Part shown: positions 9,645-62,817 of the stretch, piece after piece
Layout of the letters: each line of letters begins with the position of its first letter
Numbering within the stretch: position 1 is the first letter of the stretch
From: Bacteroidota bacterium
Lineage (GTDB): Bacteria > Bacteroidota > Ignavibacteria > Tepidaquicellales > Tepidaquicellaceae
Length of the DNA: 64,000 bases
Reading direction: 5' to 3'
NCBI GenBank assembly: GCA_018266845.1
Contig: JAFDZO010000010.1
Coordinates: 62,001-126,000, forward strand
Translations under genes and position numbers: made by a program
The notes under the pieces: generated by a model
What the model was told of the DNA's origin: nothing
What the model saw: the letters and a program-made list of their open reading frames with translations, nothing else
Databases searched by the model: none

Positions 9645-9671
9645 TTATAGGGGTAACGCTGCTCCTTTAAT

Positions 9672-9840
9672 ATTTTTGAACTCTTTCCCAAGCTCCGGCA
9701 TGGGAAAGAGAGTATTAGAGTTTTCTCCTTACGAAGCTCCAGCTTCGTAAGGAAGCATGTTTTATGAAACTGCGTTTCATTGCGAAACAGAGTTTCGTGG
9801 ATACTTTCCGTCCCAAACAGGGTTTGGGGCGGAGAATTTG
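9672..9840. repeat. Hairpin-rich interspersed repeat, copy 1
   Basis: A 169-base unit of five consecutive palindromes: stems at 9681-9690/9701-9710, 9727-9738/9741-9752 (12 bp, loop CC), 9764-9770/9774-9780, 9782-9788/9792-9798 and 9807-9818/9822-9833. It is repeated in direct orientation at 9846-10014 (period 174) and inverted at 37761-37875. No open frame or transposase is associated. It resembles clusters of REP-type palindromic units rather than a terminator. Confidence 0.85.
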
Positions 9841-9845
9841 TAATT

Positions 9846-10014
9846 ATTTTTGAACCTTTTCCCAAGTTCCAGTTTGGTAAAGAGTTTTTTAGAGTTTTCT
9901 CCTTACGAAGCTCCAGCTTCGTAAGGAAGCATGTTTTATGAAACTGCGTTTCATTGCGAAACAGAGTTTCGCGGATACTTTCCGTCCCAAACTGGGTTTA
10001 GGACGGAGAATTTG
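9846..10014. repeat. Hairpin-rich interspersed repeat, copy 2
   Basis: Direct copy of the preceding 169-base unit, offset by 174 bases. The central 12-bp palindrome (9901-9926 region) is identical, while the first and last hairpins differ in stem and loop bases. The array arose by local duplication or double insertion in the 671-base gap between the carboxylase gene and the sigma factor. Confidence 0.85.
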
Positions 10015-10022
10015 AAATTTAC

Positions 10023-10159
10023 AGGCGCCCTGTCCCGACTTTGTCGGGACGCGGCATACTGATGGATTGTAAGTAATCTGCTAAAAGACAGTCATCTTTA
10101 GTTAAAGATAAATAAGATAGTTGAGGATGCCGCCCGACCTTTCAGGTCGGAGGGCGCCT
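10023..10159. repeat. Nested palindromic element with cloverleaf-like potential
   Basis: An outer perfect stem AGGCGCCCT (10023-10031) pairs with AGGGCGCCT (10151-10159). Inside it are a hairpin GTCCCGAC-TTT-GTCGGGAC (10032-10050), a second stem GCGGCAT (10051-10057) with ATGCCGC (10127-10133), another hairpin CCGACCT-TTC-AGGTCGG (10134-10150) and an inner ATCTTTA/TAAAGAT hairpin (10094-10109). Every base of the outer arms is accounted for by pairing. No protein is encoded. It could be a miniature mobile element, a REP-type cluster or a structured RNA. Confidence 0.8.
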
Positions 10160-37544: not shown

Positions 37545-37628
37545 AAATAAATATAGTAATATATTTGCTAACAAAAATTTCCAAAAAAATAGGCTTTCCT
37601 GCTCTATTATAATGTGGGATAACATTAA

Positions 37629-37739
37629 CCCCACCCTTTAGGGTGGGGTGATGAGATAACCGAGAAGCCCTTTAGGGCAAAAGTTTAACCCTAAAGGGTA
37701 TATTTGTTGTACTTGTTACCCCATCCTGAAGGATGGGGT
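37629..37739. repeat. Cluster of four short palindromes
   Basis: CCCCACCC-TTTA-GGGTGGGG (37629-37648), GCCC-TTTA-GGGC (37667-37678), ACCCT-AA-AGGGT (37688-37699) and ACCCCATCC-TGAA-GGATGGGGT (37718-37739). They occupy the 5' side of the exonuclease gene and precede a copy of the large hairpin repeat. No gene is encoded. Confidence 0.8.
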
Positions 37740-37760
37740 TATCATTACTTTCAATTTTGG

Positions 37761-47609: not shown

Positions 47610-49334
47610 ATGTCAAAATATTTTTTTCTTTTTTTTCTTTTGATTTTTTCAAACTCTTTCTCGCAATGGTCAGGCAATACTGCGTTAAATAATCCTCTTG
47701 TAATTGCTCCCTTTAACCAGCTTGGCGCAAAGTGCATTTCTGACGGAGATGACGGAATGATAATTGTCTGGGAAGACAACAGAACGCAATCTTCCGGCAA
47801 CCGTGATGTTTATGCGCAGAGAATAAATAAATTCGGTCAGCGTGTATGGGGAGACTCAACCGGTATTCCAATCGGAGTAAAAATAAATGAAGACGAAAGA
47901 TATTACGATATCTGCTCTGACGGCAAAGGCGGCGCAATAATTATCTGGGACGATAACATTTTAACTACGCGCACAATTTTAAAAGGACAACGCATTACAA
48001 AAGCCGGAGTAAAGATGTGGAGCGATACAGGAAAGGTTGTAATCAACGATGGCAACAGACAGTCTCAATCTAAAATCACTTCCGATAATAACGGCGGATG
48101 CTTCATAGCGTATTTAACGAGTGAGTTAAGCTCAAACGATTACGAAGTAAAGGCAAACAGATTAGACAGCAGCGGAAATAAATTGTGGGGAGCCGGTTCA
48201 TGGGTTTCGCAGCAGGATGGCAACGCTTCCGAAATAGAAGGATGCACAACAAGCGATAACGGATTTTTTATTGTATGGAGCGACCCCCGAAATGCGAAAA
48301 TTACATGGAGCGATTTATACTGCCAGAAAATAAATTCTGGCGGAACTGCTTTATGGACGGCAAACGGAATTCCTCTCTGCACATCAAACTACACTCAGCA
48401 ATACGAGCGATGCATTCCCGATAATTCAGGGGGAGCATTTATTGTTTGGAACGATAACAGAAACTCCGATTCAATCACAACGCGAGTAGATATTTTCTGC
48501 CAGAGAATAAACGGCAGCGGCAATGCAGTCTTCGGCGCAAACGGTAAGGCGATATGCACTGCTCCCGAATCACAATACAGACCTGACCCTGTTACGGATA
48601 TGAAGGGCGGAGTTATTGTTAACTGGAACGATTTCCGCAACGGACCTTCATCGCCTTTCAACATAGATATTTATGCGCAAAGATTTGATTCGCTCGGCAA
48701 TATGAAATGGACTGCCGACGGAAAACAAATTTGTGATGCAGTGCTTTCGCAAAATAATAACAGAGGAGTTTCAGACGGCAACTACGGAAGCATAATTGCA
48801 TGGGACGATAGAAGAGCCGGCGCAACAGTGTATGATATTTATGCGCAAAGAATTGATTCAAGCGGAAATTTGTTATGGGGAAATGACGATGCGTTGGTGA
48901 GCAATGCAGCAGGAAATCAATATAAGCCGCAGCTTGTTAAAACTTCTGACGGAGTTATCTTCTGCTTTGAAGATACAAGAACGGGCTTAAGTGATTATAA
49001 TTTGTACACGATGAAATTATTGAACGGCGGTGGAGTTGTGAGTGTAAATACAAGCGGAAATGAGATAGTGAAAAATTTCAGATTGTACCAGAACTATCCT
49101 AATCCTTTTAATCCGGCTACGACAATAAAATTTGAGCTACAAAAATCTTCGTTCGTTCTGTTGAAAGTTTATAATTCGCTGGGCAGTGAAGTTGCGGAAT
49201 TAGTAAACGGAAAAAACGAAGCAGGAACTTACGAAATAAATTTCGATGCGGCTTCGCTTTCAAGCGGAGTGTATTTTTATAAGCTCACTTCGGGAGATTT
49301 TTCAGAAGTGAGGAACATGGTTTTGGTGAAGTAG
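47610..49334 (+). CDS. T9SS-secreted repeat protein (propeller-like), paralog of 55496-57349
   Basis: 574 residues from the ATG at 47610, which begins a signal peptide (YFFLFFLLIFSNSFSQ); a TTG 33 bases upstream adds non-signal residues and is rejected. About eight repeats of roughly 55 residues follow, each with a D-x-x-GG-x-I-x-x-W-x-D-x-R core and a D-I-Y-A-Q-R strand (for example DGNYGSIIAWDDRRAG, YDIYAQRIDSSGNLLWG). The sorting domain has YQNYPNPFNPATTIKFELQ and ends in VRNMVLVK. The repeats suggest a beta-propeller; function unknown. Confidence 0.85.
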   Translation: MSKYFFLFFLLIFSNSFSQWSGNTALNNPLVIAPFNQLGAKCISDGDDGMIIVWEDNRTQSSGNRDVYAQRINKFGQRVWGDSTGIPIGVKINEDERYYDICSDGKGGAIIIWDDNILTTRTILKGQRITKAGVKMWSDTGKVVINDGNRQSQSKITSDNNGGCFIAYLTSELSSNDYEVKANRLDSSGNKLWGAGSWVSQQDGNASEIEGCTTSDNGFFIVWSDPRNAKITWSDLYCQKINSGGTALWTANGIPLCTSNYTQQYERCIPDNSGGAFIVWNDNRNSDSITTRVDIFCQRINGSGNAVFGANGKAICTAPESQYRPDPVTDMKGGVIVNWNDFRNGPSSPFNIDIYAQRFDSLGNMKWTADGKQICDAVLSQNNNRGVSDGNYGSIIAWDDRRAGATVYDIYAQRIDSSGNLLWGNDDALVSNAAGNQYKPQLVKTSDGVIFCFEDTRTGLSDYNLYTMKLLNGGGVVSVNTSGNEIVKNFRLYQNYPNPFNPATTIKFELQKSSFVLLKVYNSLGSEVAELVNGKNEAGTYEINFDAASLSSGVYFYKLTSGDFSEVRNMVLVK

Positions 49335-49370
49335 TTTCAGATTACCTCCTCCTTAACAAAGGAAGGGGAA

Positions 49371-49690
49371 GTAAGAGGTTGAGAATCTGAATGTTAAAAT
49401 TTTTATGGATAGTGTTTCGAACCCCCTCCTTTTTTAAGGAGGGGGCAGGGGGTGGTTAGGGAGAGTGTTTTTTCATCTCTGACTTTTATGCTGGCTGGAA
49501 ACGGAAAACAATATAAGTTTATTAAATTAGTTTTTCAGACCACCCCCTCAATCCCCCTCCTTAAAAAAGGAGGGGGAGGTAAGAGGTTAAGAATTTGAAT
49601 GTTAAAATTTTTTATTGATGGTGTTTCGAACCCCCTCCTTTTTTAAGGAGGGGCAGGGAGTGGTTAGGAGAATAGAATATTTATATCTTA
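49371..49690. repeat. Two direct copies of a palindrome-bearing repeat
   Basis: A unit of about 100 bases beginning GTAAGAGGTT at 49371 recurs at 49579 (period 208). Each holds CCCCCTCCTT-TTTT-AAGGAGGGG, and an inverted CCCCCTCC/GGAGGGGG version lies between them near 49552-49578. The gap 49335-49778 holds no gene; the upstream stretch near 49346 has a related CCTCCTCC motif. Confidence 0.75.
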
Positions 49691-62497: not shown

Positions 62498-62817
62498 CTC
62501 CCCTTTGTAAGAGCAATTATATACGAGTTGGAACAAACGCAGAGAAAGTAGTTAGTAGTTTAAATTCTCCCCTTGAGGGGAGCCCGACCGAAGGTCGGGA
62601 GGGGTGTTTGAACGAACACCCACCGTCTCGCTTTGCTCGACACCTCCCTCAAGGGAGGAATTTTTGTTCTTGTTCCAACTGGTATATAGTTACTTTTATA
62701 AGGGGAGGGCAGAGAGGGGTTTAACGCAAGTTTGTGATACAAAACTGAATAATAAATTTATAATGTATAATTATGCGTTAAACCACCCCTTTAATTCCCC
62801 TCCTTATGAAGGAGGGG
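62498..62817. repeat. Composite nested inverted repeat
   Basis: Outer arms 62498-62536 and 62670-62707 (about 38 bases, mostly complementary) enclose CTCCCC-TTGA-GGGGAG (62567-62582), CCCGACC/GGTCGGG (62583-62599) and GGGTGTT/AACACCC (62602-62621). A second nested set, GGGGTTTAACGCA (62716-62728) with TGCGTTAAACCACCCC (62774-62789), and a CCCCTCCTT-ATG-AAGGAGGGG hairpin (62797-62817) adjoin it. No protein homology. It fills most of the 809-base gap after hppA. Confidence 0.75.

What the first reader, a model, noticed from the sequence alone, without database searches (positions are those of the whole stretch)
10023..10159. A 137-base element folding into nested arms with almost every outer base paired
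Outer stem, two flanking hairpins and an inner stem abut with no unpaired bases between them, giving a cross- or cloverleaf-like shape. It could be a miniature transposon, recombination site or structured RNA.
Basis: seen in the sequence. Interest (0 to 1): 0.52.

Follow-up and report, generated by a model that had tools for sequence, protein, structure and literature searches.

The report
Cross-shaped DNA repeat with swappable arms
The element is one copy of a scattered family of about 100-base repeats in one bacterial genus; all of them fold into the same four-armed cross, yet their letters differ from copy to copy because both sides of each arm have changed together, so the shape is kept while the sequence is not.

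Summary
10023-10159 folds into a four-way junction: outer stem 9 bp, hairpin 8 bp, inner stem 7 bp, hairpin 7 bp, no unpaired base at the junction (0 of 200 shuffles fold as well). By letters it is single-copy. By shape it is not. A structure scan, then a covariance model built without the window copy, found 17 copies in this genome and 14 in the only congener held. The model recovers the window copy and finds no comparable family in 391 class or 395 phylum genomes. In 25 aligned rows all 46 pairs show two-sided changes (358 cells against 12 one-sided). G-U pairs are 26 of 1399. Copies sharing up to 94% of the shell have unrelated third arms. Of seven resolved orthologous sites, two hold a copy in both genomes, five in one only. 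I read it as a dispersed, non-coding, DNA-level cruciform element, REP- or MITE-like in style, kept paired by arm-to-arm copying. The window copy is an odd member with an imperfect 83-nt third arm. Mobility and mechanism are inferred.

The parts
10023..10159 (+). whole cross-shaped element (window copy), orientation set by the GTCCCG hairpin coming first
   Evidence: folds; covariance models R1 43.3 bits E 2.3e-7 and R2 47.1 bits E 2.4e-9, neither trained on it
10023..10031 (+). outer stem, 5' side (AGGCGCCCT), terminal inverted repeat
   Evidence: parsed from the fold
10032..10050 (+). hairpin A, GTCCCGAC-TTT-GTCGGGAC, the most conserved arm of the family
10051..10133 (+). third (inner) arm: 7-bp stem 10051-10057 with 10127-10133 around 69 nt without a good fold; in the other copies this arm is a 35-48 nt palindrome, near-perfect in most
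10134..10150 (+). hairpin B, CCGACCT-TTC-AGGTCGG
10151..10159 (+). outer stem, 3' side (AGGGCGCCT)
9671..10018 (+). neighbour, not part of the element: two tandem copies of a different 174-nt hairpin-rich dispersed repeat

Best explanation
The element belongs to a genus-level family of about 100-nt, non-coding, dispersed DNA repeats. Each is made of terminal inverted repeats (about GGGGCGCC) that close a four-way junction carrying two short hairpins (A, near GTCCCG/CGGGAC, and B; loops of 3 nt in most) and a third palindromic arm. Shown: the family, its shape, its two-sided covariation, its presence or absence at orthologous sites. Inferred: the unit acts as folded DNA (cruciform, or hairpin in single-stranded DNA at replication) rather than as RNA; it spreads as a non-autonomous element moved in trans by an unidentified enzyme that reads the fold; and its arms stay complementary because replication template switching copies a change in one arm into the other, so that sequence drifts fast while shape does not. 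The window copy is a member whose third arm was replaced by an imperfect 83-nt segment.
For: Family: a model made from six others finds the window copy; 17 places in G000 and 14 in G001. Covariation: all 46 pairs changed on both sides, 358 cells against 12 one-sided, covariation score 0.863 against 0.204 shuffled and at most 0.140 slid. Low G-U: 26 of 1399 pairs; without the window copy 19 of 1346, against 9 G-U of 135 standard pairs in the 6 tRNAs parsed as a control. Arm replacement: pairs with shell identity 0.94, 0.92, 0.90, 0.87, 0.86 have third-arm identity 0.56, 0.31, 0.56, 0.59, 0.56, where pairs with shell below 0.6 average 0.45. Turnover: 7 resolved orthologous sites, 2 shared, 3 only in G000, 2 only in G001. 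No clear strand preference relative to genes: 11 to 7 among 18 tandem contexts (with the re-orientation of L184). Template switching is described as creating and maintaining perfect hairpins (PMC8794818, abstract and start of the introduction seen).
Against: No target-site duplication (mean best 1.47 nt against 1.49 for mismatched flanks), so insertion as such is not proven. No mobilising gene was identified; G001, with 14 copies, has no Y1_Tnp match. Two shared sites could mean positional function. G.T exceeds A.C (21 to 11), which leans weakly to RNA, although folding programs favour G-U. Copies were found by their pairing, so decayed ones may be missed and the perfection overstated; a blastn look in the 1.65 Mb held with the 30 elements found only 2 other places besides the 19 known there. 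Arm-to-arm copying is not observed, only consistent with block changes.
Confidence: 0.58

Rival explanations
1. Structured RNA: the copies are transcribed (3' UTRs, intergenic leaders or small RNAs) and selection on the RNA's four-way junction makes the compensatory changes.
For: Perfect, heavily covarying structure; 11 of 30 copies lie within 35 nt of the stop codon of an ORF of 90 aa or more and none within 35 nt of such an ORF's start (counted); 2 of 7 sites keep a copy in both genomes.
Against: G-U pairs 1.9%, few one-sided changes, no clear strand preference relative to genes, no Rfam match, restricted to one genus in what was searched and present in only one genome at 5 of 7 orthologous sites.
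Confidence: 0.2
2. REP dimer inside a palindrome, moved by a RAYT (Y1 HUH) transposase: A and B are the two REPs, the third arm is their spacer and the outer stem the target palindrome.
For: REP dimers inside palindromes and with complementary spacer ends are described for other bacteria (PMC3733652, passages seen); G000 has 4 Y1_Tnp matches.
Against: G001 has 14 copies and 0 Y1_Tnp matches; hairpin A has no unpaired GTAG or CGTC tag beside it; no outer-plus-third-arm palindrome with only one hairpin was noticed in the stretches held, though it was not looked for systematically.
Confidence: 0.17
3. Bidirectional intrinsic terminators.
For: At G000 C11:82352 the copy stands where G001 has an ordinary hairpin-plus-T-run terminator.
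Against: T-rich tail in 2 of 30 copies downstream and A-rich head in 0 of 30; 6 of 30 copies lie between divergent ORFs.
Confidence: 0.04
4. Chance stack of independent REP hairpins.
For: Intergenic regions here hold many hairpin repeats, and single junctions of other make-up turn up elsewhere (1 in 491 kb of other bacteria, 3 in 400 kb of G065).
Against: 0 in shuffles at score 65 or more; 31 copies of one oriented family; the model built without the window copy finds it.
Confidence: 0.01

Closest known systems
REP / BIME elements and REP dimers, incl. GTAG and CGTC families (PMC3733652; passages and part 1 of the Discussion seen)
   Same: short hairpins in pairs, mostly intergenic, often near 3' ends of genes; some dimers sit inside longer palindromes or have complementary spacer ends
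   Different: no unpaired GTAG/CGTC tag; third arm is a palindrome renewed independently of the rest; four arms meet in one junction; copies have median pairwise identity 0.66; G-T pairs rare, whereas that paper cites frequent G-T pairing as support for transcription
MITEs (features recalled; titles only)
   Same: short, non-coding, dispersed, with terminal inverted repeats
   Different: no target-site duplication found, no parent transposase identified, letters poorly conserved between copies
Mitochondrial double-hairpin elements / repetitive hairpin-forming elements (search listings only)
   Same: dispersed hairpin elements thought to be mobile
   Different: organellar; I recall no four-way flush junction for them
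Integron attC sites (recalled)
   Same: structure more than sequence is what is conserved
   Different: attC boxes, extrahelical bases and cassette arrays were not tested here

Membership tests
GTAG/CGTC REP | terminal GTAG or CGTC motif outside the base pairing | tested here: not met
   by the MFE parse 19 of 30 copies have no unpaired base at the junction and 11 have 1 to 8 in all; no unpaired tetranucleotide tag recurs beside A
RAYT-mobilised REP (GTAG type) | a Y1 (HUH) REP-associated transposase in the same genome | tested here: not met
   G000 4 matches, but G001 0 matches with 14 copies
MITE | terminal inverted repeats | tested here: met
   outer stem of 6-11 bp in the parse of 30 copies
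MITE | target-site duplication | tested here: not met
   0-3 nt flush, mean no better than mismatched flanks, 291 of 500 controls at least as high
MITE | parent autonomous transposon with the same ends | not tested
   no transposase family other than PF01797 was searched for
Intrinsic terminator | hairpin followed by a T-run | tested here: not met
   2 of 30 in the element's orientation, 0 of 30 in the other
Known structured RNA (Rfam 15) | match at gathering score | tested here: not met
   0 in the window; best below threshold at the element is UnaL2, 19 bits where 55 are needed, taken as chance; in 20 element loci only a tRNA
The cross-shaped family described here | full-length match to a covariance model not trained on the copy | tested here: met
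   R1 43.3 bits, R2 47.1 bits, full length; the lowest best-strand score among the R2 members, because of its third arm

The most novel reading that the evidence does not exclude
A DNA element whose heritable unit is a shape: a Holliday-junction-like cross recognised and moved, or acted on, by a junction-specific enzyme, with arms that are rewritten and then made complementary again by templated copying, so that new copies share architecture but not sequence.
Probability: 0.2. Interest if true: 0.87.

Novelty: new variant of a known kind. Interest (0 to 1): 0.62.

Why it matters
Sequence search with one copy does not see such a family, so dispersed elements defined by shape may be widely overlooked. 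Thirty-one natural copies with almost only two-sided changes give a direct test of whether DNA template switching, rather than slow compensatory selection through G-U intermediates, keeps stems paired. If the unit is mobile, an enzyme that reads a four-way junction awaits discovery.

Tried and rejected
Sequence search for copies: one in the own genome at E <= 0.001; in 99 genomes (own included) 98 ring at E <= 10, but apart from the window copy only with short partial hits. Pattern for the inner stem: one place, read on both strands. Hairpin pattern CCCGAC/GTCGGG: 5 places, leads only. MAFFT on six copies in the orientation found failed (A1); turning two of them solved it (A2). MAFFT on 27 copies lost the outer stem, so covariation was counted on the model-guided A5; two of its 25 rows are the reverse reading of a copy already in it, and such an alignment leans to its structure; the unguided A2 gives the same picture. 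Third arm as a capture of other DNA: 23 matching 14-mers in 0.86 Mb against 16.3 expected by shuffling, rejected. Copies with a large cargo in the third arm (up to 3 kb): none beyond those known. The G065 junction, G068 and G117, G217, G036, G170 are other repeats, some with similar topology, not counted as members. The R2 scans of 391 and 395 genomes scored only 10 candidates per genome and the R1 scan of 99 genomes 39, so weak or single copies elsewhere can be missed. Searches for a prior description; none of the listed titles and abstracts shows this architecture, in a library of open-licence papers only.

Rows dropped: the thirty-first copy (G001 C5:392595, folded) is not in the counts. 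Four copies were turned round after so that the GTCCCG hairpin comes first (L185, L182, L184, L187). The window copy was left out of the mismatch and G-U count. The place C13:37574, found by R1 only, is counted among the 17; the weak 45-nt match C22:43242 is not. An earlier count said about 14 one-sided cells; recounting the table gives 12.

Full report
CHECK. The element at 10023-10159 is real and exactly placed. It is the junction of an outer stem, two hairpins and an inner stem without a free base between them. The folding energy is 6.8 (RNA) or 7.8 (DNA) standard deviations below dinucleotide shuffles. The 69 nt enclosed by the inner stem are not well folded.

PLACE. The window lies in genome G000 (3.53 Mb, 46 contigs). 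The closest named relative of the upstream carboxylase gene in the genome collection is an Ignavibacteria MAG, 80% identical (records very near the window may be left out there), so I call the organism Ignavibacteria-like; its name is not known to me. The element stands between a carboxylase-like gene and an ECF-sigma-like gene (the names are my reading of the sequences), behind two tandem copies of an unrelated 174-nt repeat.

COPIES. Nucleotide search finds one copy. Partial hits to its hairpins led to the same architecture with other letters in the congener G001 and elsewhere in G000. A script that looks for four-way junctions was run on 457 kb of G000, 400 kb of G001 and 400 kb of G065. 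With strict settings it found 2, 2 and 0 at score 65 or more and none in shuffled sequence. With up to two spare bases and a shorter inner stem it found 5, 3 and 5, against none shuffled; the five in G000 and two of the three in G001 are alike, only one of the five in G065 scores above 70, and the third in G001 (L122) did not become a member. Six of these, without the window copy, align in one orientation (36 of 47 pairs with two-sided changes). The model R1 built from them finds the window copy at 43.3 bits. Among 99 genomes it finds 24 matches in G000, 18 in G001 and weak ones in G065, G068 and G073; the other 27 genomes of the family and the 15 of the order have none. Matches on both strands count twice; distinct places are 17 and 13. 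R2, from 25 model-aligned rows, adds one place in G001. In 391 class genomes R2 rings beyond these two only weakly, in 5 genomes; in 395 phylum genomes, besides G000, only in G117.

ANATOMY. In 30 copies the parse gives three branches inside the outer stem in every case. Hairpin A mostly begins GTCCCG and ends CGGGAC, with a 3-nt loop in most; B is often CGAACC..GGTTCG or TTCGCC..GGCGAA; the third arm is 35-48 nt except in the window copy, with AATTGAA...TTCAATT common at its apex; the outer ends carry a GGGGCGCC-like motif. Copies are 98-137 nt. Two copies carry a further hairpin nested in A (L181, L187). The window copy's third arm is 83 nt, and it has the lowest paired fraction, 0.74.

EVOLUTION. 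On A5, 97.1% of cells are paired against 63.2% after shuffling, and every one of the 46 pairs has two-sided changes. On the unguided A2 it is 92.0% against 68.2%. G-U pairs are 26 of 1399. Copies with nearly the same shell have third arms hardly more alike than those of copies with unlike shells (mean 0.51 in 17 pairs with shell 0.8 or more, 0.45 in 182 pairs with shell below 0.6), so the arm is replaced or drifts much faster while it stays a palindrome. Mismatches are 21 G.T to 11 A.C in 29 copies, not clearly strand-asymmetric. A blastn look for decayed copies found 2 further places beside 19 known ones.

SITES. Seven orthologous sites could be resolved between G000 and G001, with flanking sequence about 70-85% identical. 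Both hold a copy at C22:137334 / C2:843036 and at C22:115147 / C2:857475, with different letters. Only G000 holds one at the window site, at C11:82352, where G001 has a plain terminator, and at C41:171646. Only G001 holds one at C2:1684129 and at C2:1744170, where G000 has another hairpin repeat. The other copies were not resolved, because the partner stretch was not held or only one flank matched. Eleven of 30 copies lie within 35 nt of the stop codon of an ORF of at least 90 aa, counted; the ORFs there are mechanical.

MECHANISM. Shown: family, shape, covariation, turnover. Inferred: DNA-level action, mobility, arm-to-arm copying. Low G-U and block changes fit replication template switching, described for hairpins in PMC8794818 (abstract and start of the introduction seen). 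The closest described architecture is a REP dimer inside a palindrome (PMC3733652), but the tag test fails and the RAYT test fails in G001, so I do not file it as a REP. It may still work like one.

VERDICT. Real, a family, and not described in the papers that my searches listed. The mechanism is open.

Noticed in passing
window 9671-10018; L084 1012-1075: A 174-nt hairpin-rich repeat, two tandem copies here; a search with both gives 71 BLAST matches in the genome; one copy ends about 10 nt from a RAYT-like Y1_Tnp ORF on contig C7, so it may be that transposase's REP family.
   Followed up: partly
window 62577-62671; also L031, L032, L033: Another dispersed repeat of G000 folds into a cloverleaf (outer CTCCCCT/AGGGGAG type stem with three hairpins), a second family with the same topology.
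   Followed up: partly
L250 1439-1588; L201 89-213; L291 about 1490-1640; L290 about 1490-1620: Repeats of the GTCATCCTGAG / CTTCGAC type in other bacteria also carry two extra hairpins at opposite places of a long stem.
   Followed up: partly
L108 2344-2470 against L325 7590-7700: In G000 a cross element stands where its congener has a hairpin-plus-T-run terminator, with a T-run kept behind it.
   Followed up: no
window 37601-37760: Long near-perfect palindrome around TAACCCCACCC...GGATGGGGTTA.
   Followed up: no
window 49330-49670: Cluster of CCCCCTCCTT/AAGGAGGGGG inverted repeats.
   Followed up: no
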